Shown here one piece after another: positions 5,300 to 50,676 of a stretch of 64,000 nucleotides of DNA. The stretch's first letter is position 1. Each line of letters begins with the position of its first letter. The stretch lies in contig JAMWFC010000102.1 in the NCBI GenBank assembly GCA_027475525.1, positions 124,001-188,000 on the forward strand, read 5' to 3'. Position numbers and translations under genes: made by a program. This DNA is from Macrolepiota albuminosa. Lineage: Eukaryota; Basidiomycota; Agaricomycetes; Agaricales; Agaricaceae. Below the pieces are notes generated by a model. The model was not told the origin of the DNA. It saw nothing but the letters and a program-made list of their open reading frames with translations, and did not search any database.

Positions 5300-5663
5300 T
5301 GTTGAAATTGCCTGTTGCATGCATTCCATTATGATCATCATTCTATCCCAAGTTCATTCTATCACATGTATTCCCCATGTGATTATATTCTATCACATGT
5401 ATCCACATGTGATTATACTTTATCACATGTATCCTCCATGTGATTATATTCTATCACATGTATCCACATGTGATTATTCTTTATTCACATGTATATAGTT
5501 TTCCAGTAGTATATAAACTGTAGATAGATCATCTGAAGTCCTCACTCTTTCTGACTTTGGACTTCAGGTTAGTAATACTTTACTTGCTCAATACACTCTT
5601 TCTGACTTTGGACTTCAGCTTTAGTGACAGTTTCTGTCCCCTGTGCTTTGCCTGTCTTTAACA
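5300..5663 (+). repeat. Solo LTR 1 of a small Copia-like family (364 bp)
   Basis: Ends are TGTTGAAATTGCC...TGTCTTTAACA, flanked by a perfect 5-bp duplication TACCC (5295-5299 and 5664-5668). A TATA-like TATATAAAC lies near 5512. Upstream are four 30-31 bp units each containing an ATCACATGT...CATGTGAT palindrome, and downstream is a duplicated ~28-bp segment containing CTTTCTGACTTTGGACTTCAG. No internal region is present. Copies at 8605 and 37476 carry three and two palindromic units. Copia affiliation is an inference from size and layout. Confidence 0.9.
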
Positions 5664-8604: not shown

Positions 8605-8932
8605 TGTTAAAGACAGGCAAAGCACAGGGGACAGAAACTGTCACTAAAGCTGAAGTCCAAAGTCAGAAAGAGTGTATTGAGCAAGTAAAGTATTACTAAC
8701 CTGAAGTCCAAAGTCAGAAAGAGTGAGGACTTCAGATGATCTATCTACAGTTTATATACTACTGGAAAACTATATACATGTGAATAAAGAATAATCACAT
8801 GTGGATACATGTGATAGAATATAATCACATGGAGGATACATGTGATAAAGTATAATCACATGTGGATACATGTGATAGAATGAACTTGGGATAGAATGAT
8901 GAATGGAATGCATGCAACAGGCAATTTCAACA
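8605..8932 (-). repeat. Solo LTR 2 of the Copia-like family (328 bp)
   Basis: This is a reverse-oriented copy of the 5300 repeat, with ends TGTTAAAGACAGG...CAATTTCAACA on the plus strand. It is flanked by a perfect 5-bp duplication GTAGC (8600-8604 and 8933-8937). It has three palindromic 30-31 bp units instead of four. It interrupts the C-terminal part of element B gag, whose reading continues on both sides. Confidence 0.9.
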
Positions 8933-10390: not shown

Positions 10391-11141
10391 TGTCAGGTTC
10401 CGCTAAGTCGGGGGCTTTCCGGGAAAGCAACGCCCTTACAATGCGGACTTGACCTACGAATACTTGGGTGTCTGGAACTCCGGGGCTAGGACTCCGGGGT
10501 TCAAGACGAGGACAGGGGTAATCCCGGGATAGGGGACTAGAGTCCAGGGGTTTTGGGTTGGAGGTAACTGAGGTTAGAGGGGGTCGAGTCATGAACCGGA
10601 GGTTCTAAGACAAGACCAAGTTAGTAAATCAAGAGTCGCGAAGTGCGTACCAAAACTTAGAGCACGCGAATACTTAGGCGTGCCAGTCGAAGCGTACCAA
10701 TCAAGGCGTACCAGTCAAGCAAAAGGGCATGCAATAACCAAAGTAAAGCAAGTAACAGTGTATGTAATATCAAGACTAGCGAATACAACAAGGAACTATG
10801 CTATAAGTACTACGGGACCCGGTCTCGGGGTTCCAGGGTGTCTGGGATGGGCTCCGGGGGTCATTGAGTAGTAGCAGGGGCTGTATACCGGGATCGCGCA
10901 TGTGGGGCGCACGATCAATTGGCGTGGAGGGAGCTGTGATGCGTGATGCGTGATAGCCGGAAATGGGCCACGTGATCCGGTCGTTAATCGGGGCTGGTGG
11001 TGGCTGATGGCAGTCCTTGATGCGCATGATAACGGTGTCGGCGGTCGTGATGGCGGGGCGTGTCCTGCGGGGTCGGCGGGAGGGTCCCAGATGGTGTTCC
11101 GGGGATGTCTCGGGAGGGTCCGGAGGGGAGGGGTCATGACA
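10391..11141 (-). repeat. 3' LTR of element C (751 bp)
   Basis: TGTCATGACC...ACCTGACA on the minus strand. Differences from the 5' LTR are transitions plus one single-base indel. They sit in the first ~90 bp and the last ~345 bp as read on the plus strand, with about 320 bp identical between. It contains a 14-bp motif repeated three times (GCGT[A/G]CCA[A/G]TC) near 10678-10720. Short open frames in it have copies in both LTRs and no recognisable product. Confidence 0.95.
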
Positions 11142-11154
11142 TCACCCCCCCTTC
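11142..11154 (-). promoter_or_regulatory. Poly-purine tract of element C
   Basis: On the minus strand GAAGGGGGGGTGA directly precedes the 3' LTR. This is the expected plus-strand DNA priming site. Element F has a nearly identical tract (GAGGGGGGGTGA) at the same place. Confidence 0.8.
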
Positions 11155-11269
11155 AGCGCCGAGACCCTCCGAGGCACGCGTAGCCGGTGGCTCGGACCAG
11201 GGTCCAACCGTGGGATCCTGCACCTGACGTGCCACGTATCGAAAAAAATTTTACCATCGAACTCAACTT

Positions 11270-13022
11270 ATGTCACGTACGCCGACGCATTCCCCGACGC
11301 CCCCGCCAACTAACAAAGTCACGCCCCTTATGGCCTGGGAGGCCCGGGATGCGTGGTACCGAGCCCGCCTCAACTGAGAGCGCATGGCGGAGCTCGTCCG
11401 GCAACGTGAGTGCTTCCCGCATCGTCCGCCTAACTCCCCTGACCTTCCCATTTCAGAACAACTCAGCCACCCTGTCCCGGAAGCGGGTCCCAGCCGGCAT
11501 CCGGAGGTTGCTCCCAATGCGGGCCCAAGCATTCTCCCGGAGTCCCGCCCCAGTCGTCCTGCGCCTACCTTTGCGCGGATGACTGTCCGCCCTCCCCGCC
11601 CTCAACCCCCTCCCCGTCCTAGGCTTCCTGCCCCCCGCTTTCGTCGCTCCGGAATGGCGATAGGGGCCATTTCAGAGGTCCCGGAGGGTCAACGCGTTGC
11701 GTGGGAGGGCGTTATGCAAGAGTTGTTTGAGGGGGCCCTTGAGAGGCTCCAGGGCTTACCTGCCCACGCCTGGTGCGTGAGCAACGGACCGGTGAGTGGG
11801 CTCTCCCCTCTTGGTCTATGTGCTGATTTCGGTGCAGTGCCTGCACTGCGCCCGGCGCGTGGTGCCTTGCCTGTTCGAAGTTCTGGGCCCCTCGTCCCGC
11901 CGCGATACATCCGTCTGCGAGGCCTGCCGTCATAACCATGAGCGGTGCTCCATGTCAGCGCTGTGGAGGGCGCGGTGTGTCTCCCAGGAGCAGGGGTGGC
12001 CGCTGGCTGGGGTTACTCGGAGGATGGAAGTGGAGGAGCGGGACTGGGTGGTGGAGCCGGTGGGGGAGGAGTCCGCAGCGCCCGCTGAGGCGCCCAGTGG
12101 GGGGTCGAAGGGTCAAGGGGTCGTTCGGGTGGGGGGCCAGAGGCGGCCCGTGGTCCTGATCACCTGTTGGGTGACCCGGGCCGGGACCAGCAGTCACGAG
12201 GGTCGCGGGGGGCGCCCCGACAAGGGGAAGAGGCGGGCGTCACCTAGTCCCTCCCCAGGGTCTTCTAAGAGGGTGCGCCTGCCTGCGGAAACCCCGCCCC
12301 CGACTCCCCCAGCGCGCCTCTCCCCGGCGACGTTCTCTTCCCTGTCTGGACGACCGCTGGATGTTGAAGTGAGGGCTCTGCAGGAGCGCCTCGAGCAGGC
12401 CAACCGGGAGCGGGAGGAGCACGAGGAGGGGGCGAGGGAAGAGGCGGCACTCTGGAGGAGGCTGGAGGAGGACCGCGAGATGGCCCTCCGGGAGCTGAAG
12501 GAGGCGAGGGTGGCCCGAGGGGAAGCTGAGGCTCAGCTGGATGCCATAAGGGCCAGGCTGGGGCAGGGGGTAGGGCTCCCAGAGCGAGGTTCCTCGAGCC
12601 CGGGGTTGGTCGAGGCCTTGCACCGGGACGTGGTCATTGGGCGCATGGCCTCCTTGAGTGAGTGTCTCCCCTTTCATGCCTAGGTCGTACTAATATTTCC
12701 AGGCTGGGCTCAGGAGCACTGTCTGCTCCTCGACGGGGCCGCCGCGGCACTTGCGTCTCTCCAAGAGGGGCTACAGTCGGAGGCGGGGAGCCCCGGGGTG
12801 GAGCGGGGTCTAGATTTGTTGAGGAGGCTGGTGGGTGCGCACCGCCGGAGAAACGTCCCGGCCCCAGGATCGTGGTTTGAGCGCATTTTGGACGAGGGCA
12901 AGCAGCTTCTGTCCTGGGAGCAGCTGGCCGAGGAGGTGTTGCGAGAGCACGGTCCAAAGGGGGTGGGGGAGGATTTCCGGGGTTGGCCGAGGGGGGGGAC
13001 TGGCGAGGGGAGTTCCGGTTAG
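11270..13022 (+). pseudogene. Antisense spliced gene in element C: Zn2Cys6-like, coiled-coil protein
   Basis: Four exons: 11270-11405, 11457-11791, 11838-12657 and 12703-13022. Introns of 51, 46 and 45 bp all start GTGAGT and end CAG. Branch-point-like CTAAC/CTGAC, CTGAT and TACTAAT precede the acceptors. The exons total 1611 nt and stay in frame for 536 residues, except for one TGA at 11375-11377 (codon 36); an ATG at 11384 would avoid it. Residues 158-194 read CX2CX6C-X15-CX2CX6C, two Zn2Cys6 half-sites with an unusually long linker, starting exactly at the second splice junction. Residues ~286-303 form a bipartite nuclear-signal-like basic segment, and ~333-399 a charged coiled coil. The N-terminal third is Pro-rich. 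I infer a nuclear DNA- or chromatin-binding protein; no homologue was checked. Confidence 0.75.
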
Positions 13023-13367: not shown

Positions 13368-14837
13368 TCATTGAAAGTCCCAGAGCTTGTCGAGGGCGTC
13401 TTCGAGGTTTCGACGTGGTTCCCAGGTGTCGTCTTCCGGGCCGTATCCCTTCCATCGTACGAGGAAGTGGGGTCGTCCACGAATATTCCGGGAGTCGAGG
13501 ATGTCTTCGACCTCGTAGTGGTACTCGTCCTCGACCTCGACCGGGGGAGGGGGCTCGGGGCGTCGTTCGGGGAAAGGATCCGGGGGGTGTTGTTCCAGGA
13601 GGCGGACGTGGAATACCGGGTGCAGACCTTTTAGTCTCGGGAGGAGCTCAATCTTGTAGGCGTGGGATGAGACCTTCTTCAATATTTTGAACGGGCCGAG
13701 GCGCTTGTGATCGAGTTTTGGGGAGGGCCGGCGGGTGCGGAGGTGGCGTCAATCTAACCATACCTTTGTCCCGGGGGTCCAGTCGGGGGTGTCTTCCCGT
13801 TTCCGGTTGGCGTGTTTCGCATAGGCCCGGTTTGCGGTATCGATCTTTTCCCGAAGAAACTCGTGAAGGGATTTGAGATCCTGGGCGACCTCGTGGGCGG
13901 CGTGCGACGGGATGTCCCGGAGCGAGAGCGTCAGTCGAGGGTGGTATCCCTTGTTGGCGAAGAAGGGCAATACCTCGGTGGCAGAGTGCGGCGTGTTGTT
14001 GTAAGTGAATTCGGCCAGGGGGAGCTCGGTGCGCCAGTCGTCCTGCAAGTAGTTGACGTACAGTCAGAGGTACTGCTCGAGAGACTGGTTGACCCTTTCG
14101 GTTTGGCCGTCGGTTTCGGGGTGGTAGGCGGTAGAGAGGTTAGTCTTTACTTCAAGTGCCTTACACAGGGAAGTCCAGAACTTGGACACAAAGAGAGGGC
14201 CACGGTCGGAGACGATGTCGTCCGGGAGTCCATGTTTGGCAAAGACGTGCTCGAGGAACAGCCGGGCGAAGTCCAGGGCGGTGTCTGTGGTGTGGCAGGG
14301 TAGGAAGATGCCCTGTTTGGTTAGCCTGCACACAACGACAAGAATGGCATCGAACCCTTCAGACTCCGGGAGTTCGACGATGTGGTCTAGGGATATGGAG
14401 GACCAGGGGCGTCGTCCGACTGGCAGGGGTTTTAGGAGTCCGTATGGTCGGTGTCGGGGGACCTTGGCCCGGAGGCAGGGTTCACATGATCGAATGTAGC
14501 GGGTCACGTCCTTCTTCAACCCTGGCCAAAAGTAAGTCCGGGAAATCAGCTGAAGAGTCTTACGTATCCCAGGGTGTCCCCAGAGCTTGTGATCGTGGTG
14601 TTGACGGAGGACATCGTAGCGGAGTCGGGCGTGATCCAGAACGTAGATGCAGCCGTCCCGGAGGAGTTTTTTGTCGGGGGACAAGGAAAAGGCGGGGTCC
14701 CGGTTGGTTTCGTCAGAAGAGTTTTGGGGGTCGTGATCGGTGAAGTACTTGTCTTGGGGAGCGTGGCGGATCTGGTTCAGGGTTCCTTCATTGTTTAAAA
14801 TCAGTACAGCATTCAGATGTTCGGGAGGGATCACCAC
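13368..14837 (-). pseudogene. Element C integrase with C-terminal chromodomain
   Basis: Integrase inserts the cDNA, and the chromodomain is thought to guide it to modified histones in chromoviruses. From 14837 leftwards the minus strand shows the HHCC domain (HDHKLWGHPG then CEPC). The DDE core is intact: SLDHIVELP, SDRGPLF and TDGQTERVNQ. Next are the linker with KVWLD and [10 protein letters not shown], and a chromodomain ([24 protein letters not shown]; 13380-13540) keeping its aromatic residues. TGA codons at 14064-14066 and 13749-13751 each sit where Arg is likely (CGA to TGA). Confidence 0.9.
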
Positions 14838-14927: not shown

Positions 14928-16757
14928 TCATCCCAGGCGGTACTGGATCGTGAAGTCGTATTCCGAGAGCACCTCGGACCATTGGGCCTGCCGTCGACTA
15001 AGCTGTTTGGTCGTGGTGAAGTACTGCAGGTTGTTGTGATCCGAGTAGACCTGAATCCGGTGCCGGGCTCTCTCGAGGTAGGCTCGCCATTGCTTGAAGG
15101 CTTCGACGATGGCGAGGAGTTCCTTGTCGTAGATGTCGTAGTTGAGCTCGGCGTCGATTATGGACCGGGTGTAGAAGGCAACTGGCCGGGGCTCCCCTCC
15201 GGCAGGTTCCATCTGCGAGAGAATCCCGGCGATGGCATAGTCGGAGGCGTCGCATTCCAGGATAATCGGGAGGGTCGGGTCGTAGTGCCGGAGTACAGGG
15301 GCGGTCGTGAAAGCCTCCTTGAGCAGGTTAAAGACACTCTGGCACTTACTGTCCCAGTTCCAGGCAACGTCCTTGCGCGTGAGCCGGTTGAGGGGTTTCG
15401 TGATACCGGAGTAGTTATCTATGAACCTCCGGTAGAAGTTAGCAAAACCCAAGAAAGACTGTACTTCCTTGACGTTCCGGGGCTGTGGCCAGTTGACGAT
15501 GGCCTCAACCTTGTGGGGGTCCATGCGAACGCCGTTCGGGGATACGATGACGCCAAGATACTCAACCTCTTCCGTATGGAATGAACACTTCTCGGGCTTG
15601 GCGTGGAGGTTGTGCTCCCGGAGGCGTTCGAGGACTTGCCGGACATGCTTCTGGTGATCCTCCGGCGAGTCGGAATAGATGAGGATGTCGTCCAGGTAGA
15701 CGATCACGAAGATGTCGCTCATGTCGTGGAAGATGTTGTTCATGAAGTATTGGAATGTGGCGGAGGAGTTAGTCATTCTGAAAGGCATCACAAGGTACTC
15801 AAACAAACCATACTGCGTGCAGAACGCAGTTTTCCACTTGTGTCCTGGGACGATGTGGACGTTGTTGTAACCGGAGCGGAGGTCGATCTTCGTGTAGACT
15901 TTGGCGCTGCGGAGTCGATCGACCAGGTCACCAATGAGCAGGAGCGGGTAGCGGTTCTTCTTGGTGATCTTATTGAGTCTCCGGTAGTCGACACAGAGTC
16001 GGAGCAAGCCGTCCTTCTTCTTGGCGAATAGAACCGGGGCTCCGGCGGCGGAGGCGGAGGGTCGGATGAATCCCTTACCGAGCATTTCGTTGAGGTAGTC
16101 CTTGAGAGCCCGGAGTTCGACCTCCGACATGTTGTAGACCTTGCCGAAAGGGGGGGTGGCTCCTTCCTCGAGGTCGATGGTGTGATCATAGGGGCGGTGA
16201 GGGGGGATCTCCTTGGCGTCTCCTTTGGAGAATACGTCAGCGAACTCGTGATACTCCGGGGGAACTACTTCTTGGAGGATTTGCTCCTCGGTTTTCTGTT
16301 CCGGGGGAATAGCGTCCCCTCGTAGGTGTTCTTCCAGGAGAGAAGGCGAGGTGTGCAGCTGAAACGTGGGAGTTCCATCCCTCATGAGGCAGGCGAAGGG
16401 GGCGGCCCCAATGATCCTAATGTCAAGGGCGCTCGGGTCGATCGGGGTCGTGGAAGCATCAGCTGAAGCGGATGTGACGCATGTCTGAGACCGGCAGGGG
16501 TAGTTCGGCCCTTTGTACTTGTTCCGAGGAATGTTTGGGGGTCGATCGGGGGCCTTGCGGTCTCGGACGGGCGTGGGTGGTGCATGCGTCGGGGGCGCGT
16601 CGGTCGTCCCGGGGGTGTCGGGCGTTGGGTCGTTCCCTAGGGCCCAGAGGTGCACGGCGGTCAAGGGGTGGTCTTCGGGTCCCAGGAAGGTCATGGTGAG
16701 CGTCTTCCAATCAATGTCAGGGTTCGTGTCACGCAGCCAGAGTAGTCCCAGCACCAT
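14928..16757 (-). pseudogene. Element C reverse transcriptase and RNase H
   Basis: This is an uninterrupted 609-codon stretch. RT motifs appear in order: LFAKKKDGLLRLCVDYRRLN, YTKIDLRSGYNN, FEYLVMPFRMTN and the catalytic VYLDDILIYS, all intact, followed by PEKCSFHTEEVEYLG. RNase H shows LECDASDYAIAGIL, YDKELLAIV and VYSDHNNLQYF. It ends at TGA 14928-14930 just before LGAKPDALTRR, again a likely CGA-to-TGA change. Upstream it continues from the second protease domain through TGA 16776-16778. The residues needed for both activities are present. Confidence 0.93.
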
Positions 16758-17640
16758 CGGGGTCGACTCGTGAAGTCACGTGACCAGGAAGTCGGAGGTG
16801 AACTCGTAGTTGTTGTCCAGGGTCACGCTCCCAAGTAGGACCTTTGGATGGGGCCGGAGGAGGAGGGGGTGCCGTCAAGGCGTTGCAGGCGGAGGGGCTG
16901 GTCGAGGGAGTCGTGGGGGAGGTCAAGGGCATCGCTGATGAAAACCCCGGTGGCTCCGCTGTCAATAGGAGGGGCTGGTCGAGGGAGTCGTGGGGGAGGT
17001 CAAGGGCATCGCTGATGAAAACCCCGGTGGCTCCGCTGTCAATAAGGGCCGATATCGGTCCTGGGGCGCCGTCCAGCCTGGCATTGATGACGAAGGATCG
17101 GGACGAACGAGACTGGAGTCCAGGGGGTAGTGGGGGCTCGTCCGGGGGGTCCTTCGGGGTTGGATTTGAGGAGTGGGAGATGTCGAAGGGGAGTTGCTGG
17201 TCGTTGGGGGTCGGGTCCTGGGTCAGGCGAAGGGTGAGGTGTTGCCAATCGATGCGGAGGTTAGTGTCTCGGAGCCACGGGAGCCCTAGAACCAGGGGTG
17301 CGGAAGGGTGAAGTTTGGTCACCAACATCCGGAGGGTGTGAGTCTGTCCGTTGGCGAAAGTGACGGGCATACGCACGAAGTGAGTGATGTCCCCTGCCGT
17401 AGAGGCGTCTCCGTCGAAGAGGCAGAGCCATACCGGGACCGGGAGTCGCTGGGCGGGTTCCGGGGCGAAGGTAGACCATGCTTCATCGATGAAGTTGTCG
17501 GTGGCGCCACTGTCGACGAGGGTGTTGAGGGGAGTTCCGGAGGGGGTGAGGCGGGTTTTGAGGAGGAGGGAGTGCGAAGAGTGGGAGGGTAGGTAAGCCG
17601 TGAGGGTGTCCTGTATGAGTGTTGTAGAGCGAAGATGTGA
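16735..17640 (-). pseudogene. Element C tandem aspartic-protease domains (PR1 and PR2)
   Basis: Two retropepsin-like domains follow one another. PR1 has LVDSGATDNF (about 17500-17530) and ends LGLPWLRDTN (about 17270-17300). PR2 has LIDSGATGVF (about 17020-17050) and ends LGLLWLRDTN (about 16728-16757). Both have the D-S-G site and the hydrophobic-hydrophobic-Gly signature, and the stretches LVTKLH and LVT-LH precede the second motif in each. A 77-bp tandem duplication (16891-17044) shifts the frame inside PR2, and a further one-base shift occurs near 16845. Ty3/Gypsy elements usually encode one such domain, acting as a homodimer. Here a two-domain chain is an inference. Confidence 0.8.
16891..17044. 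repeat. Perfect 77-bp tandem duplication in PR2
   Basis: 16891-16967 and 16968-17044 are identical (unit starts GGAGGGGCTGGTCGAGGG). As 77 is not a multiple of three it shifts frame. Without it the PR2 frame reads on as QPLRLQRLDGTPSSSGP. Two other 77-bp perfect duplications exist in the window, at 20097 and 50523. Confidence 0.97.
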
Positions 17641-17777: not shown

Positions 17778-20496
17778 TCATTTGGGGCACTCAGAGATGA
17801 AATGGTCTTTCTCACCACAGAGTATGCAGACACCTTCCCTTCTCCGTCGTTCCTGCACATTTGTCGGGACTTCGATCCAAGGTCGTCCCTTCTTTTGAAG
17901 CTGGTTGGCCCGGAGGGCCTCCTCGTCCCATTCGTCGTCGAGGTCAAAGTCTTTGGGGTCTTCTGGGGGTTCCTTGGGGCTTGGCGCATCGCCCGAGTCA
18001 GGGGCGGCCACGGCGGTGTTGAGTTGGGCCTGAGGGCGGGCGCCGCTGCCGGGGTTAGCATTGGGCGGGCCGCGACTCACCGGGGGTCGGCCGCCAGGGA
18101 ATGCGGGGAGACCTGGGTTTCGACCTTGGGGGTTGGGGGCTTCGCCGGAGAGCCAAGGGGGTCCTCCTTTAGAGTTCCAAGGGGGTCGGGAATTTGAATA
18201 CTCACTGCGGTCTTCCCAGTAGCGTTGGTCGATCTGCATGACGAGGGCCTTGTATCCGTCGTAGGAGGGTTGTTTCGGGGCGAGTCGGAGGACGTTCTTG
18301 ATGCGTTGTGGCAGGGCGCGGCAGAGGGCGTACCGGAGGGCGCTGTAGTTCCAACCTGTTTTGTAAGCTTCCTTCTCAAAACGTACGATAAAGGTGGTGA
18401 AACGTTCTTCCGAGCGCATCCGGAGGTTGAAGAGGTTGTCCTCGGCCTCGGCCACGGTGTCGTAGATTCTGAACTTCCCGGAGAACTCATCAATGAAGGC
18501 CTGCCAGCGAGCGAGTGCCGGGTTGTTGGGGTCGAACTGGATGAGGGCCGTGTAGTAATCGAAGGCGATCCCCTGAAGGTACGATGCAGCAAAGGCCACC
18601 CGGGAGCTGTCAACCTGAAACGTGAGCGGCTTTGCCTGGAACGTGTTGAGACACTGAGTGAGGAAGGTACGCCATTTTTGGGGGTCCCAGCCCATGAAAG
18701 CGTCGGGCTTTTGAATGTCCAGTCGTCCTTCGCAGGCGAGGGCGTTGCGAGCGTCGTCCGGTCCGGCAGCGTTGTGGGGAGGGGGGCCAGCATTGTAGTA
18801 GTAGTAGTAGTGATTACCCCCCCCTCCTTGAAGAGGAAAAGCACCAAGGGCAGGACCCCACCCGCTGGGAGGTCCTCCTCCGGGTGGCTCACCTGGAGGT
18901 CCACGCCTGGGAGGCCCGTTGTCCCAAGGGGGTTCGTTCCTGCTAGGAGGGGGCCCGGGTCTCCACGCAGGGAGTGGCGGAGGTGGAGGGCCTGGGGGTC
19001 GTCCTTGAGGTTCGGCTGGGGGTGGCGGAGGTGGTCGGGGAGGGCTCAGCGGTGTCGGGTCGGGCGGAGGGGGGCCGGGTGCTGGGTCGGGTACTGGGTT
19101 GCGCGGAGGACGTTCAACCCGGGGGGGTCGTGCTTGTATTGGGGGTCGCGGGGGGTTTCGTAGGTCGAAGTGGGGTGGCAGATCGCGGCAGAAGTTGCGT
19201 TCTGGAGGGACCGGGGCTGACGTAGGGGGCGGTACCGGAATGGGTGCGGGTGCAGGACGTGGTTCGTTGTTGCCACACGTAAGCTCGTCGATGTAGCACA
19301 GCGTGTCGTCTGTGCTAGGGGTGTCCGCGCAGAGTCTGCCGGGGTTCGCCGGGGCCGGGGGTTGGGCGTTGTCTGTTCGCGGGAGGGGTTCCAGGGGTCT
19401 TTGAGGCTGTCTCCAGGTCTCGAAGGTACTAGGAACGGAGTTAGCCCTGCAGCAAGTTGACAAGCCTACCGTGCGGGCTGCGGGTTGATTGAAGAGGCCT
19501 CCAGCCGGGTTGAGGGACCGCAACATGGCTGAGGCGTTTTGTCGTTCTTCCCATTGTCGTTGCTCCGGAGTGGGGACCGTGGGGGCTGCCGGGGCTGCTG
19601 GGGCCGGTTCCGGGGGTTCCTGTTGAATGTGAATTGAGCAACCTGGGTCCGCGGGGTCGTTGAGGGGCTGAGGGGAGGGGGACGCGTGGACTTCGTCGAG
19701 CAGTTGCTGTAATTCTTCCCGGAGGATCGTATTGCGCCTATACTTTACCATGGTTTGCTCCAGGAGTTCTCCTTGCGTGAGGCAATCCCTGAATTCGACC
19801 AGGCAGTGAGCCCATTCCTCTAGAGTGCCTTCAAAGTCGTCGTGTTCAAATTCCACAAGCAGCGTCCTTGTCCATTGCGCAAAGTCCTCCGGTAAGATCC
19901 TGAGAGAGCGGAGTACCTCGTCCCGTTGCCATTCATACTTCTCGAGGCATCGTCGTCCCATTAGCGAGGGAGGGGTTCGAGCGGGTGGAGCGGTGGCCGG
20001 ATAATGACGAGGGGGGTAGTCAGGGTAGGGGGGTCCTCAGGGTTCTCGGGGTTGGGGGACGGGGCACTGATAACCGTAGTAGGGGGTAGGTGCAAAGGGG
20101 CCCTCGCTGGGGGGAATCGGGCGAGGTCCACTGGGTACAGGTGGGGTCTCCGGCAGGCCCCCGGGGATGCTCCGGGGCCCTCGCTGGGGGGAATCGGGCG
20201 AGGTCCACTGGGTACAGGTGGGGTCTCCGGCAGGCCCCCGGGGATGCTCCAGTACGAGAGGACCTCCACGGGTCGTGCCATGGCTAAGTTGGGCAGAGGG
20301 GCCCAGCTGGCTGAGGGCTCCAGGTCGTAGAGAGATGGGTCGGGGGCCCAGTGGCGGTGGAGATATTGAGGTTCGTACGGGAGAGGTGGATAGACGGGGC
20401 GGGGGTCTGCGCGGAGTAGTGATCGGGTACCGGGCGTCCGTAAGGGTCGGTCTGATACCCCGTGGGGTAGTAGGTGTGAGTATACGTAGCCATCAA
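17778..20496 (-). pseudogene. Element C gag
   Basis: The main open frame (17778-19961, 727 codons) begins MGRRCLEKYEW and has a helical N-terminal part and a very Pro-rich middle (about residues 225-370). Next comes a capsid domain (KPDAFMGWDPQKW, CLNTFQAKPLTF, YLQGIAFDYYTAL, EAEDNLFNLRM). It ends with a canonical knuckle CILCGEKDHFISEC (CX2CX4HX4C) directly before TGA 17778-17780. Coding continues upstream (MATYTHTYYPTGYQTDPYG..., ATG near 20491), broken by a TAG near 20284, a 77-bp duplication at 20097-20250 and a TGA near 20036. A frame change follows between 17700 and 17778 before PR1. It is longer than most Gypsy Gags because of the proline tract. Confidence 0.85.
20097..20250. repeat. 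Perfect 77-bp tandem duplication in gag leader
   Basis: 20097-20173 and 20174-20250 are identical (unit starts GGGGCCCTCGCTGGGGGG). It shifts frame in the N-terminal part of element C gag. Confidence 0.97.
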
Positions 20497-20526: not shown

Positions 20527-21278
20527 TGTCAGGTTCCGCTGAGTCGGGGGCTTTCCAGGAAAGCAACACCCTTACAATGCGGACTTGACCTACGAATACT
20601 CGGGTGTCTGGAACTCTGGGGCTAGGACTCCGGGGTTCAAGACGAGGACAGGGGTAATCCCGGGATAGGGGACTAGAGTCCAGGGGTTTTGGGTTGGAGG
20701 TAACTGAGGTTAGAGGGGGTCGAGTCATGAACCGGAGGTTCTAAGACAAGACCAAGTTAGTAAATCAAGAGTCGCGAAGTGCGTACCAAAACTTAGAGCA
20801 CGCGAATACTTAGGCGTGCCAGTCGAAGCGTACCAATCAAGGCGTACCAGTCAAGCAAAAGGGCATGCAATAACCAAAGTAAAGCAAGTAACAGTGTATG
20901 TAATATCAAGACTAGCGAATACAACAAGGAACTACGCTATAAGTACTACGGGACCCGGTCTCGGGGTTCCAGGGTGTCTGGGATGGGCTCCGGGGGTCAT
21001 TGAGTAGCGGCAGGGGCTGTATACCGGGATCGCGCGTGTGGGGCGCGCGATCAATTGGCGCGGAGGGAGCTGTGATGCGTGATGCGTGATAGCTGGAAAT
21101 GGGCCGCGTGATCCGGTTGTTGATCAGGGCTGGTGGCGGCTAATGGTGGTCCTTGATGCGTGTGATGGCGGTGTCGGCGGTCGTGATGGCGGGGCGTGTC
21201 CTGCGGGGTCGGCGGGAGGGTCCCGGATGGTGTTCCGGGGGTGTCCCGGGGAGGGTCCAGAGGGGAGGGGTCGTGACA
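20527..21278 (-). repeat. 5' LTR of element C (752 bp)
   Basis: TGTCACGACC...ACCTGACA on the minus strand, partner of 10391-11141. The proposed RNA start (20913) divides it into about 365 bp U3 and 387 bp R-U5. Confidence 0.95.
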
Positions 21279-45896: not shown

Positions 45897-48800
45897 ATGA
45901 CAGGAAGGATAAGCCCACCTTCCAGGACTCCGAGAAAGGGCAAGAGCAGTAGAGGAGCGCTAAGTTTCGCTTCGCTAAACATAAAAGGAGGGAGCTCCTC
46001 ATCTACCGCGGCAAAATGGCGTGAACTACGCCAACTGATGAGAGAAAGAAAAATCGACATTTTGGCTGTACAAGAAACCCATATCGACGAAAGTAAGAGG
46101 GAAGAAATTGAAGAGCTCTTCCAAAGGCAAATGAAAATACTAACGAGCTCTGACCCAACGCACCCAAACGCGATGGGAGTCGCCTTTATCCTGAATAAAC
46201 GAACTACGAGGTGGCAAGAGGTGAGGTCGCAAGAACTTATCCCCGGAAGGGCAATCACATTAGAAATCCCATGGTTCGAGGAAAAAACACTGAGTTGCCT
46301 GAATGTCTACGCCCCAAATGGACTAGGAGAAAACAAAAAGTTCTGGCGAAGGCTAAAAACGTTTTGGACCTCACGTCCCAGTATACCGAGACCAAACGTT
46401 ATGTTGGGTGATATGAACATGGTCGAAGAGGCAATAGACAGGTTACCCGCACACACTGACCCAGCAGGAACCACGAGAGCACTAACCGCGCTAAAAACAC
46501 ACCTGGATATAGCGGATGGATGGAGATGAGAGAACCCAACAACAATAGACTTCACGTACCAAATGATAAATAGACCAATACAATCTAGAATAGACCGAAT
46601 ATATCTAGAGGAATCCCTCCTCGCATACAGTTGGGATTGGAAAATAGATCATTCCGGCATAAACACGGATCACGCAATGATATCAATGACTCTACTAAAC
46701 CCCTGGCAACCATACATCGGTAAAGGAAGATATGCCATGCCGGTTCACCTGCTAAAGGACGACGAACTCATCGATAGAATCGAGAAACTTGGAATTGAAC
46801 ATCAGAAGAGACTGGATATGTGCAAAGAGAGCCGTACCGAATGGGAAAATCCGCAACGTCTACACAAGTCCTTTAAAGACAAGATAATAGAAATCATAAG
46901 ACAGCGGTCGAAAGAGACCAAGCCAAAAATCCTGCGTGATATAAACGCACTAAAAAGCAATAGGAAAGAAATTCTAAACAACACGCAGTTGGGTGAAGAC
47001 CTCAGGAGAGAAGAAGCGGCCATCCTTGATGAAAGAATCAAGAACCTAGAAATGCTACGTTTTGCAAGAGCGCGGGATACGGTGGCAACGAGTTTCTTCC
47101 TATATGGTGAGACAGTGACCAAGCCTTAGATAAACATGAATAAGGAACAGAAGACCAGAGACTGCATACCCGCACTACGTAAGCTCAGCCCAAACGAAAA
47201 TGAGCTAGAAAGAAAATCGGAAAAGATGGCTGAACTGGCAGAAGGACACCATAAAAAACTACAGGAGGAGGACGTGCCAGCAAACCGGAGTGACCACCGA
47301 AGAAAAATGAGAAAGGTCCTGTCAAAGATAAAGACAAAGATAAAAGCTGAACAGAAAGAAGTCTTGAGCGCGTTAATAACGAGAGATGAAGTGGAAACTG
47401 CTATAAGCAAGCTCCACTCTGGGAAAGCTGCAGGCCTCGATGGCATCGTGCACGAACTATGGAAAGAACTTACGTTACGGTATGAGGATGCCCAGAAAGA
47501 AGAGAAGCAAGGTTTTGACATAGCCGGAGCAATGACCAGAGTTTTCCAAGACATCCAATTACATGGGATGGAAAGCGGGACAAAATTTGCAGAAGGCTGG
47601 ATGTGCCCGTTATATAAGAAAGGGGACAAAACAAATATAGGGAACTACCGTCCTATAACAGTACTGAATACGGACTATAAAATCATGACTAAAGCTCTGA
47701 CCTTAAAGCTAGGAGAGATTGCTCCAGACATAATCCACCGCGACCAGGCTGGGTTTATGCATGGGCGAAGGATCGAGGACCAGACAGAACTAGCTAGAAC
47801 GGTTATAAACTGGTGTGAACTAACAGAGAGAAATGGTATGATCGTGTGTTTAGATCAAGAGAAAGCCTACGATAAAATCCTACACGTGTTCCTCTGGAGA
47901 GCGATGAAAAGATTTGGTATTCCGAAGGAATTCATTGATACGATAAAAGCACTATATAGCGATGCCTACACAAAAGTGATCTTAAATGGTGAGATAAGTA
48001 AAGGATACAAAGTGACCTGAGGAGTGCGCCAGGGGGACCCCCTCTCCTGCCTCCTCTTCAACATCGCGATCGAATCCCTAGCGCAAATGCTTCGGTCGTC
48101 AGAACTAAGAGGAATAATAACTGAGGAAGAAACCGAAAGGTTAATCGCAACACTTTTTGCTGACGACACTACCGTATACCTGGATGAAGAGGACAATTTC
48201 CAGGACCTGCAAAAGCTTCTTAAGGAATGGTGCACTGCATCGGAGGCGCGGTTTAATATCCCAAAAACCGTTATAGTTCCAGTAGGTGCAGAAGGGTACA
48301 GGAAAGAGTTGATAGCCAGCAGGAGGACGAAAAATGCAAGCCAAGAGATCCCGGAGAATGTTAAAATTGCGGGCGAAGGTGAAGCAACGCGTCTGCTGGG
48401 AGCTTTCGTGGGTAACAAGGTCGATAACGTTAGTGTATGGACTCCGACAATAGAAATAGTGTCGAGAGATTTGAAGAGATGGAATAAGGGGAGGCCTACA
48501 ATTGAAGGGCGCTGCCTAATAATAAATATGGTTGTGGGAGGACGTACCCAGTACAGGACCTTAGTACAGGGAATGCCAAAACAAATAGAAGAACAACTCA
48601 CTAGGAAGATAAATGAATTTATGTGGAACAGCGACTCCCGGCAAATGGTTGGTATGAAAACCCTCCGTCTACCCATAAAAGAAGGGGGCAGGAAAGTTCT
48701 CGACCTTAAGGCAAGGAACGAAGCTATAGAAATTATGAAGACCCAAAGGTACCTAAAGTTTGACAACGACCGCCCCAGATGGGCAGTACTGGCAGACAAA

Positions 48801-50624
48801 ATCATAAATAAGAAAATAGCCGAAGTACATGGAAACAACGAGAAAGCCTTGGCCAACCTGTTTCTGCAGACAACAACAGTGGATACAAGAGCCACAGAGG
48901 AAGGGCTGCCAACACCAATACAAAAGATGCTACAAGTGGCAAAAAAGTTTGACGTAAGTTTCCACCCACTCACCCTGAGAAACGATCTAAAAGGCCAAAT
49001 GCCGGCCTGGTTCCACCTGGGGTTAGCCCGTGAGAAATACCTCAGAACAAACACAGCCACAATGTTGTGCATGAGACGAAGCCACGAGATAAGAACAGTA
49101 GGAGAAATGGATGTGCTAGGTCGGGTCCTAGGCCCAGAAGCACCACAAACACATAAAGCTAGGAAGAATTGCATATGTATGGTGTGTAAGAACATGAGAC
49201 GAAAAGGGTGCGGAAACCCCCATAAGTGTAGTAAAACGGCCCGAGCTTACATAGCGAGGCTAGAAGAGAAGTGGAACCCAACCGCCCCTGAGATAGATAG
49301 GGGAGTAAAAATAGAGGAAGAAAACTTAATACACGACGAGAATAGAAGAATTTTTGACCCAGGCATAACAATGAAAGGATCCCTCAAGGAAGGTTTCAGG
49401 ATCTTCACGAAGACGGACACGCTGCACACGGGGCAAGACATTTACAGAAGGAACCCCCAACTTCCCCCGGACCTGATCACAATTTACACAGATGGCTCAT
49501 GCATAAAAGACGAGAAAGGAAAAGCAGCAGCGGGAGCTGGCGTATGGTTCGGACCAGATGACCCACGAAACAGGGCAATACGGCTCCCGGAAAGCATACC
49601 ACAGACGAATAATGCTGGTGAAACTGCGGCCGTGTTGATCGCGGCACAGTCAGCCCCACAGGATCAGGCAATCCTAATAAAGAGTGACTCCCAGATCATC
49701 ATTGACAACCTAACTAGGTACCTAGAGAAGAGGGAAAATGACGGCTGGATAGACACGGCCAACAGAGAGCTCCTAATACCGCTAGTAGCCACTCTAAGAA
49801 GAAGAGATGGCATAACTTTGCTCGAAAAAGTTAAGGGCCACGTCGGAATAAGAGGGAACGAAGAAGCAGACAGACTGGCAAACGCTGGTGCACGCAAGCC
49901 TACCCCTGACGAAATAGATACTACGGTACCGCCGGAATACTACCTCCCTGGGGCAAAACTGGCAGAAATTACCCAAGCAGTGGCATACAGAGGCATATTA
50001 GAAAGAACACCCGCCCCCCAGAGAAGAGGCACCGCCGTGCACCTCGACATGACACGGTGGGCGGCAAAAGAAAGACTAGGTTTTTTCCTGACTGACGACC
50101 AGATTTGGTTGTCCCTGAGAGACGTGGACCTGACTCGACAGGTTAGAAACTTCCTGTGGCGTGCAATGCACAATGCATACAAGGTCGGGAAGTATTGGGA
50201 AAACGTTAGGGACTGCGAAAACAGGGCGATGTGCCCGCTGTGCGAAACGACCGAGACACTGGAACATATATTTACAGAATGTAAGACGTCGGGACAACAA
50301 ACAGTATGGAATTATGTCGAGAAACTATACCAGAGTAGAGGAATAAATTTTAAGAAACCATCCTTCGGAGACCAGTTGGGGTGCGCACTCACAAAGAGAG
50401 TCAGGAAAGAAGATAAAGGGGAACGTAGATTCCGAAAGATAATAATCTCGGAAGCGATGTACTCAGTATGGAAACTAAGGTATGAATGGAGAATTGCAAG
50501 AGAATCAGACCCGGACAACACTTTCACGGAAAGAGAGATCATATTGAAGATTAGAGCCGCGATAACACTAAGGATGAAACTTGATTGCCTCGCAACAGAT
50601 TCACGGAAAGAGAGATCATATTGA
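45897..50624 (+). pseudogene. LINE ORF2: endonuclease, reverse transcriptase, RNase H
   Basis: One frame of 1575 codons with stops at codons 211 (TGA 46527), 411 (TAG 47127) and 708 (TGA 48018). The AP-type endonuclease (residues ~20-255) shows FASLNIKGG, VQETHID, LNVYAPN, LGDMNM and TDHAMISM. RT shows KAAGLDGIVHELWKE, NYRPITVLN, QAGFMHGR, CLDQEKAYDK, then the stop within V-T-stop-GVRQGDPLS, and catalytic FADD (residues 754-757). RNase H (residues ~1195-1335) shows IYTDGSC, NNAGETAA, SDSQIIID and GNEEADRLANAGA. A CPLCETTETLEHIFTEC zinc motif lies near residue 1445. A 77-bp duplication changes the last residues; without it the frame ends at LATDEKGLA. Confidence 0.92.
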
Positions 50625-50676
50625 AGATTAGAGCCGCGATAACACTAAGGATGAAACTTGATTGCCTCGCAACAGA
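50523..50676. repeat. Perfect 77-bp tandem duplication at the end of LINE ORF2
   Basis: 50523-50599 and 50600-50676 are identical (unit starts TTCACGGAAAGAGAGATC). It shifts the frame for the last codons of ORF2. Confidence 0.97.

What the first reader, a model, noticed from the sequence alone, without database searches (positions are those of the whole stretch)
11270..13022. A spliced, Zn2Cys6-like gene carried in antisense inside an LTR retrotransposon
Seen: between the chromodomain and the 3' LTR of element C, the strand opposite to gag-pol has four exons. Its three introns (11406-11456, 11792-11837, 12658-12702) have GTGAGT donors, branch-point-like motifs and CAG acceptors, and they restore a single frame of 536 codons with one TGA. 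The product has CX2CX6C twice, a bipartite basic segment and a ~65-residue coiled coil. Known: antisense extra ORFs occur in some plant LTR elements, and an antisense gene can keep introns because they are not spliced from the genomic RNA. Inference: the element carries a regulatory, DNA-binding passenger that may act on its own or host chromatin.
Basis: partly seen in the sequence, partly recalled or inferred. Interest (0 to 1): 0.88.

Follow-up and report, generated by a model that had tools for sequence, protein, structure and literature searches.

The report
Backward spliced gene in fungal retrotransposons
A family of jumping genes in a fungus carries, written backwards near its end, an apparently real intron-containing gene for a zinc-cluster-like protein that selection preserves about as strongly as the element's own integrase, so the element may make its own regulator.

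Summary
Confirmed and extended. Window 11270-13022 (+) holds a four-exon gene, antisense to gag-pol, between the chromodomain and the 3' LTR of a Ty3/gypsy chromovirus. The window copy has one in-frame stop; 9 of 27 aligned rows (2 of 20 distinct copies) are open end to end. It is no one-off passenger: at least 295 places carry it, and of 150 scored integrase hits 118 have it just downstream, all 118 on the opposite strand. Splice signals persist while introns diverge and change length out of frame. dN/dS is 0.22-0.31 in the antisense frame, against 0.235 for the neighbouring integrase; the mirror frame gives 0.49 and the other four exceed 1. A predicted Termitomyces protein is homologous across an exon junction. 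The product has a Zn2Cys6-like cluster below Pfam's cut-off, a basic NLS-like segment and a coiled coil. Best reading: a self-encoded nuclear regulator acting on the element's LTR or chromatin, like HTLV-1 HBZ. Transcription, DNA binding and function are inferred. Antisense extra genes are known in plant elements and fungal Boty: a new variant of a known kind.

The parts
10391..11141 (-). 3' LTR of the element (TGTCAG...ATGACA), next to the start of the antisense gene; candidate source of the antisense promoter
   Evidence: matches 20527-21278 in 722 of 752 columns; all 29 mismatches are transitions, 1 gap. Promoter role is inference.
20527..21278 (-). 5' LTR
11142..11269 (+). Conserved 128-nt leader between 3' LTR and ATG; on the other strand it holds a polypurine-tract-like run next to the LTR (read by eye)
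   Evidence: mean pairwise identity 0.846 over 66 pairs of 12 copies, higher than the exons
11270..11405 (+). Exon 1 (ATG; carries the in-frame stop of this copy)
11406..11456 (+). Intron 1
   Evidence: GT in 16 of 20 and AG in 20 of 20 distinct copies; lengths 49-51
11457..11791 (+). Exon 2
   Evidence: its end aligns with residues 27-75 of the predicted Termitomyces protein P0001; dN/dS of exons 1+2 0.22, 15 pairs
11792..11837 (+). Intron 2, directly before the first Cys
   Evidence: GT 20/20, AG 19/20; lengths 44-49; P0001 runs across this junction without extra residues
11838..12657 (+). Exon 3: Cys cluster, basic segment, coiled coil
   Evidence: dN/dS 0.31 over 55 pairs of 11 open copies; other frames 0.49-1.36
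11838..11948 (+). Zn2Cys6-like cluster CX2CX6CX15CX2CX6C
   Evidence: six Cys kept in 20/20 copies and in all 13 rows of A4; Pfam Zn_clus below its cut-off
12222..12278 (+). Bipartite basic, NLS-like segment KGKRR...KRVR
   Evidence: KGKR invariant in all 13 rows of A4, including Termitomyces P0001 and L049; function inferred
12357..12569 (+). Coiled-coil segment
   Evidence: AF2 helix 176-245 of the L013 exon 3, blocks of pLDDT 79-97; helix 227-324 in P0001
12658..12702 (+). Intron 3
   Evidence: GT 20/20, AG 19/20; lengths 44-49
12703..13022 (+). Exon 4: conserved C-terminal domain (EHxLLLDGAAAAL...) and stop
   Evidence: all 150 scored places (of 776 candidates) at least 80% identical; dN/dS 0.23, 36 pairs
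13368..13370 (-). Stop codon of pol, 345 nt beyond the antisense stop; the two genes converge
13386..13517 (-). Chromodomain at the integrase C terminus
   Evidence: PF00385, 3.1e-14
14064..14837 (-). Integrase region
   Evidence: PF17921 above cut-off, rve just below
14928..16757 (-). Reverse transcriptase and RNase H
   Evidence: PF00078, PF17917
17778..19961 (-). gag
   Evidence: PF03732 8e-5 and zinc knuckle 3.5e-4, both below cut-off

Best explanation
The element is a fungal Ty3/gypsy chromovirus whose usual gene set includes a third gene, written antisense between pol and the 3' LTR and interrupted by three short introns. SHOWN: the gene model, its fixed antisense position at 118 of 150 integrase hits, preservation of splice signals and reading frame, and purifying selection about as strong as on the integrase. 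FOLLOWS from orientation: the introns survive retrotransposition because the packaged RNA is the other strand, where they are not introns. INFERRED: transcription starts in or beside the 3' LTR and runs inward; the RNA is spliced; the protein enters the nucleus through its basic segment, dimerises through its coiled coil, and binds DNA through a Zn2Cys6-like cluster; its main targets are the element's own LTRs or chromatin, where it adjusts sense transcription or silencing. It would work like HTLV-1 HBZ without being related to it.
For: Gene model and frame. Nine of 27 rows open end to end: L009 and the group L013-L020, whose exon 3 proteins are identical. L009 has intron lengths 49, 46 and 46 against 51, 46 and 45 in the window copy, so its open frame exists only if introns are removed. 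No intron is missing in any of 27 aligned rows. Intron cores are 0.46-0.62 identical against 0.73-0.80 for exons (66 pairs of 12 copies). dN/dS 0.31 in frame against 1.16-1.36 in four other frames and 0.49 in the mirror frame; exons 1+2 0.22, exon 4 0.23, integrase end 0.235. 118 of 150 integrase hits, 62 of 72 RT hits and 35 of 40 chromodomain hits have the gene downstream, all on the opposite strand; on the other side 1, 0 and 0. Predicted Termitomyces homologue 9e-14, 37% over 316 residues across the exon 2/3 junction. Six Cys and KGKR invariant across three lineages. Zn_clus hit below cut-off. AF2 of P0001 places short helices at both CX2C motifs (77-82 and 103-107) in blocks of pLDDT 75-86.
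Against: No RNA data, so splicing and transcription are not observed. 18 of 27 rows are not open end to end: stops or frame shifts, an altered end (L026, L035), or no end within the locus (L040). Zn_clus stays below its cut-off, is absent at E<=1 from the whole L013 protein and from 10 of 13 members. Exon 3 alone gave pLDDT mostly under 50 over the Cys region; in P0001 the loop between the halves is at 59 and pTM is 0.28. Foldseek gave no match at E<=0.001; PDB sequence searches gave no zinc-cluster relative. No target site is known; I recognised no promoter by eye and ran no promoter scan. 32 of 150 integrase hits had no gene found beside them (truncation, scoring cap or real absence). Exon 3 dS averages 1.8 times the integrase dS in the same six copies, though 3 of 15 pairs go the other way, so the two do not share one simple history, or the assembly is mosaic.
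Confidence: 0.5

Rival explanations
1. The antisense protein is a nuclear accessory factor for integration rather than transcription: it travels with the pre-integration complex or works with the chromodomain integrase to choose or open target chromatin.
For: It sits next to the chromodomain in the element and has a basic, coiled-coil, possibly DNA-binding composition. PMC7264820 section 7 raises accessory, pre-integration-complex roles for plant antisense ORFs.
Against: A separate antisense transcript is an awkward way to make a virion component. Nothing in the sequence points to integrase binding.
Confidence: 0.2
2. The protein is a counter-silencing factor that protects element copies from host methylation or heterochromatin.
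For: All 29 mismatches between the window element's LTRs are transitions, so the copy seems to have been under cytosine-directed mutation. A family-specific DNA-binding protein could oppose that.
Against: No direct evidence; decayed copies are common, so protection would be weak.
Confidence: 0.15
3. The antisense RNA, not the protein, is functional (dsRNA, siRNA or interference with sense RNA).
For: Antisense RNA regulation is discussed for plant and retroviral elements (PMC7264820, PMC10186651 passages). The two genes converge 345 nt apart.
Against: dN/dS of 0.22-0.31 and frame preservation point to selection on protein. It may act in addition.
Confidence: 0.06
4. A host gene or another mobile element inserted by accident into this one copy.
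For: A second lineage (L049-type, 82 places) shows a listed integrase or RT hit within 12 kb at only 6 of 82 places (those lists are capped), so the gene may have been acquired from another carrier long ago.
Against: At least 295 places of the window type; 118 of 150 integrase hits carry it in the same place and orientation.
Confidence: 0.02
5. The region codes for a sense-strand (pol-strand) protein and the antisense frame is only its shadow.
For: The mirror frame on the pol strand has dN/dS 0.49, and an ORF of 145 aa exists at 12240-12677.
Against: That frame contains 2-8 stops in every pair printed, and a value between is expected for a frame that shares the third position. The antisense frame gives 0.31 (its copies were chosen for being open). 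The aligned intron signals are on the antisense strand.
Confidence: 0.01

Closest known systems
Boty-like retrotransposons of Botrytis cinerea with antisense gene brtn (Zhao et al. 2011, seen only as a citation; mentioned in PMC7264820, PMC8365987, PMC4227169)
   Same: Fungal Ty3/gypsy element with a chromodomain and an additional antisense gene between pol and 3' LTR
   Different: brtn sequence was not in hand, so homology is untested. No zinc cluster or introns of brtn are mentioned in the passages I saw. Host is an ascomycete (recalled).
Plant antisense aORF-3R genes: Grande gene23, RIRE2, Retand ORF4/TRP28, PvRetro13 (PMC7264820, PMC11963269)
   Same: Position between pol and 3' LTR, antisense, kept in most copies; some products nuclear or predicted to bind DNA
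   Different: The domains named there (TRP28, SMC) are not among the Pfam hits here. The term 'intron' was counted 0 times in the main text of both papers. The hosts are plants.
HTLV-1 HBZ and related antisense proteins (PMC10186651 passages)
   Same: Antisense gene expressed from the 3' LTR, spliced form, nuclear regulator of transcription; the layout is the analogy
   Different: HBZ is a bZIP protein of a retrovirus; no sequence comparison was made. Expression here is not shown.
Fungal Zn2Cys6 transcription factors (PF00172)
   Same: CX2CX6C twice, basic segment and coiled coil in the same protein
   Different: Zn_clus below its curated cut-off; 15 residues between the halves; long linker; gene lives in a retrotransposon
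Hypothetical protein C0989_008493 of Termitomyces sp. Mn162 (P0001)
   Same: Homologue: six Cys, KGKRRASPSP...PSKRAR, coiled coil, exon 2/3 junction
   Different: Annotated as hypothetical, longest contig 1,998 bases, so its carrier is unknown; 37% identity

Membership tests
Ty3/gypsy chromovirus (Metaviridae) | gag, protease, RT, RNase H, integrase in gypsy order between LTRs | tested here: met
   RT, RNase H and integrase H2C2 above cut-offs; protease and gag below cut-offs but in order; LTRs
Ty3/gypsy chromovirus (Metaviridae) | Chromodomain at the integrase C terminus | tested here: met
   PF00385 53.1 bits, cut-off 25.1
[quoted passage not shown]
   118 of 150 integrase hits, all opposite strand (150 of 3105 candidates were scored)
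Antisense additional ORF between pol and 3' LTR (aORF-3R) | Conserved as a protein | tested here: met
   dN/dS 0.22-0.31
Antisense additional ORF between pol and 3' LTR (aORF-3R) | Transcribed in antisense | not testable with these tools
   no RNA data
Zn2Cys6 binuclear cluster (PF00172) | Six Cys as CX2CX6C twice | tested here: met
   20 of 20 copies at all six positions; all 13 rows of A4
Zn2Cys6 binuclear cluster (PF00172) | Score over Pfam's curated cut-off (21 bits) | tested here: not met
   13.7-18.5 bits; matched at E<=1 in 3 of 13 members
Zn2Cys6 binuclear cluster (PF00172) | 5-12 residues between the two halves (PROSITE-type spacing, recalled) | tested here: not met
   15 residues in window, P0001 and L049
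Zn2Cys6 binuclear cluster (PF00172) | Two short helices, one at each CX2C, around two zinc ions (recalled) | tested here: inconclusive
   helices 77-82 and 103-107 in P0001, blocks of pLDDT 75-86 with 59 between; low confidence in exon 3 alone; zinc not modelled
HBZ-like antisense regulator | Spliced antisense transcript from the 3' LTR | not testable with these tools
   splice signals only
HBZ-like antisense regulator | Sequence homology to HBZ | not tested
   no HBZ sequence was compared; resemblance is of layout only
Boty brtn | Homology to brtn protein | not tested
   sequence not held

The most novel reading that the evidence does not exclude
This chromovirus group encodes its own zinc-cluster transcription factor. 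It binds the family's LTRs and forms a feedback circuit with sense transcription, so a selfish element has evolved an HBZ-like regulator independently of retroviruses. The gene is a mobile module: a diverged second lineage sits in another repeated carrier in the same genome, and a third is in Termitomyces.
Probability: 0.35. Interest if true: 0.8.

Novelty: new variant of a known kind. Interest (0 to 1): 0.62.

Why it matters
The function of antisense extra genes in LTR retrotransposons is called unknown in the papers I saw (PMC7264820, PMC11963269, passages). Here the gene is under clear protein-level selection, has a recognisable zinc-cluster-like, coiled-coil layout, and keeps three introns, which gives a clean test: spliced antisense reads can come only from this strand. 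With hundreds of copies and two further lineages for comparison, DNA-binding specificity and co-evolution with LTRs can be tested directly. It also suggests that some hypothetical proteins in fungal gene sets, such as the Termitomyces one, belong to mobile elements.

Tried and rejected
Full-length protein search of 5.8 billion proteins: none of the 7,981 scored candidates passed. The Cys region alone: 8 candidates, none scored. Only the profile of exon 3 found P0001. Viral contigs (IMG/VR) and genome contigs (bacteria and archaea): no relative; fungi are not what these collections hold, so this says little. PDB by sequence: nothing for the Cys profile, two weak non-zinc-cluster matches for P0001. 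Foldseek in PDB and BFVD: no match at E<=0.001. NCBIfam: nothing relevant. A copia RT search did not explain the carrier of the L049-type gene; I compared places by eye only.

Rejected: one-copy passenger, sense-strand coding, chance ORF. Papers: ten searches were answered. Apart from papers on brtn, no listed title or start of abstract named an antisense gene in a fungal retrotransposon with a zinc cluster; I read passages or sections of seven papers only. The library holds open-licence papers only. Dating by LTR divergence was not attempted beyond the identity count, and no promoter scan was run.

Cautions on counts. Each genome search scored only its best candidates (40 to 150), so numbers of places are lower bounds and absence near an integrase hit is not proof of absence. 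The 324 places include 29 L049-type ones; without them 295 remain. Pieces on one strand less than 1.5 kb apart were merged; a copy split by a larger insertion may count twice. The places were copied by hand, leaving out places already listed. Distances allowed: 3.5 kb for integrase, 6.5 kb for RT, 4 kb for chromodomain. Of 39 loci fetched plus the window were aligned (27 rows); the other 13 are partial or split. Of 18 exon 3 copies without stops, 7 duplicates of L013 were dropped before dN/dS, so the absence of stops there is by choice. In one search exons 1+2 with up to one stop and integrase frames with up to two stops were admitted, the stops shown as X for alignment and skipped in the counts.

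Full report
What is there. On the + strand at 11270-13022, between the 3' LTR (10391-11141) and the chromodomain of a gag-pol element encoded on the - strand, four exons separated by introns of 51, 46 and 45 nt join into 536 codons with one internal stop. The surrounding element has RT, RNase H and integrase domains, a chromodomain, and two LTRs that match in 722 of 752 columns and begin and end TG...CA.

Is it a real gene? The region is repeated (54 matches from the 40 candidates scored of 657). I aligned 27 rows: the window plus 26 of the 39 loci fetched. Nine are open from ATG to a stop at codon 540: L009 and L013-L020. L013-L020 have identical exon 3 proteins, so this is 2 of 20 distinct copies. 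L040 is open as far as its locus reaches; L026 and L035 are open but end in a shifted frame; the rest, the window copy included, have stops or frame shifts. Splice donors and acceptors are kept while the intron interiors diverge: intron cores are 0.46-0.62 identical between copies against 0.73-0.80 for exons. In 20 distinct copies GT is kept in 16, 20 and 20 and AG in 20, 19 and 19. Intron lengths vary out of frame, yet L009, with lengths 49, 46 and 46, has a fully open spliced frame. No row lacks an intron.

Selection. For 11 distinct copies of exon 3 without stops (55 pairs), dN/dS is 0.31 in the antisense frame. Four other frames give 1.16-1.36; the mirror frame on the pol strand gives 0.49, with stops in every pair printed. 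Exons 1+2 give 0.22 (15 pairs of 6 copies), exon 4 0.23 (36 pairs of 9), and the integrase end 0.235 (15 pairs of 6). Protein function has therefore been maintained about as strongly as in an enzyme the element needs. The antisense gene diverges faster: mean dS is 0.40 against 0.22 in the six shared copies, though 3 of 15 pairs go the other way, and pairwise distances of gene and integrase correlate only moderately (rho 0.58 for 16 copies, none of 2000 permutations as high). Exchange between copies is one reading; a mosaic assembly is another.

Is it part of the element? Yes. Combining places, 118 of 150 integrase hits, 62 of 72 RT hits and 35 of 40 chromodomain hits have the gene downstream, always on the opposite strand; on the other side it occurs at 1, 0 and 0 (repeated without L049-type places). 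At least 295 places carry the window-type gene. Fifteen of the integrase hits were linked to gene copies that, among, only the distant Termitomyces query found, so the arrangement spans diverged subfamilies.

Relatives. An alignment of exon 3 found one public protein, 'hypothetical protein C0989_008493 [Termitomyces sp. Mn162]' (9e-14). It aligns over 316 residues at 37%, running across the exon 2/3 junction; as a separate gene prediction it supports intron 2. A second lineage, L049, 31% identical to P0001, is also repeated (112 pieces at 82 places) and has the same Cys spacing, KGKR segments, a coiled-coil-like stretch and, after a frame break where intron 3 would be, the C-terminal domain. 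Its carrier is unknown: a listed integrase or RT hit lay within 12 kb for 6 of 82 places (the lists are capped), and the one flank at hand shows, by eye, no chromodomain in the 938 nt beyond the gene's apparent stop. The fungus is not named. That it is an agaricomycete is an inference from the Termitomyces hit and the intron style.

The protein. Order: low-complexity N terminus, CX2CX6C-X15-CX2CX6C, linker with a bipartite basic segment, a coiled coil of about 70 residues, and a conserved C-terminal domain of unknown kind. Pfam Zn_clus appears for the isolated region at 13.7-17.6 bits and for P0001 at 18.5 bits, below the cut-off of 21; at E<=1 it matches 3 of 13 members and not the whole L013 protein. 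AF2 of P0001 gives short helices at both CX2C motifs with fair local confidence, 59 between them and pTM 0.28, as expected for a binuclear cluster (recalled), while exon 3 alone gave a poor model of that part. Fold searches gave no match at E<=0.001. So it is zinc-cluster-like by sequence; membership of the Zn2Cys6 family is not established.

How it probably works. The start codon lies 129 nt from the 3' LTR, so a promoter in the LTR or in the conserved leader would drive it inward. The packaged RNA is the other strand, so introns are kept at each round. The product would be nuclear, dimeric and DNA-binding, and the most economical target is the element's own LTR or chromatin. This mirrors HTLV-1 HBZ (PMC10186651, passages) and the suggestion made for plant antisense ORFs and Retand TRP28 (PMC7264820, sections 5 and 7; PMC11963269, passages). 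Transcription, splicing, DNA binding and sign of action are inferences.

What is known. [quoted passage not shown] PMC8365987 and PMC4227169 passages). In the main text held of 'LTR Retrotransposons in Fungi' the terms 'antisense' and 'zinc' were counted 0 times (PMC3248453), and in the Laccaria paper none of the terms asked occurs (PMC3411680). A search for fungal + gypsy + antisense ORF + retrotransposon found no paper. In the library searched I therefore saw no earlier report of a multi-intron, zinc-cluster-type antisense gene in a fungal chromovirus, but the library lacks most subscription journals.

Caution on the assembly. Of 71 near-exact tandem duplications listed (unit 25-300 nt; window and L009-L049), 68 have a unit of exactly 77 nt, at many unrelated places (one place is listed twice). 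This looks like joins of assembly-graph pieces overlapping by 77 nt rather than biology. A 77-nt duplication shifts a frame; two lie inside this element (16891, 20097), none within the antisense gene of the window, and L012, L024 and L025 carry one inside the gene. Counts of broken copies and of near-identical copies should be read with this in mind.

Noticed in passing
window 16891-17044, 20097-20250, 50523-50676; L009-L047: 68 of 71 listed near-exact tandem duplications with units of 25-300 nt have a unit of exactly 77 nt at unrelated sequences (one place listed twice). Probably an assembly artefact: graph pieces overlapping by 77 nt joined without trimming. It shifts frames and inflates the count of broken genes in this genome.
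   Followed up: partly
L049 (G000:C27:393640-395040) and 81 further places: Second, diverged lineage of the same Cys6, coiled-coil gene (112 pieces at 82 places), repeated together with 3' flank; a listed integrase or RT hit lies within 12 kb at 6 of 82; carrier unknown.
   Followed up: partly
L009 / G000:C110:4909069-4921174: A window-type element appears to be inserted inside an L049-type gene: the two parts of that gene lie about 10.9 kb apart, the length of the window element.
   Followed up: partly
window 10391-11141 versus 20527-21278: All 29 mismatches between the two LTRs are transitions, which suggests cytosine-directed mutation; the flanks GCGAC and GCAAT agree in only 3 of 5 bases.
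   Followed up: no
L040: Locus L040 holds two copies of the antisense gene in opposite orientations, one about 71% and one about 80% identical to the window's.
   Followed up: no
window 5387-5663 and 8605-8881: 277-nt perfect inverted repeats 2.9 kb apart, possibly the ends of a DNA transposon or foldback element.
   Followed up: no
window 47136-50624 (+): Reverse transcriptase, RNase H and zf-RVT domains of a LINE-like element, with a 77-nt tandem duplication near its end.
   Followed up: no
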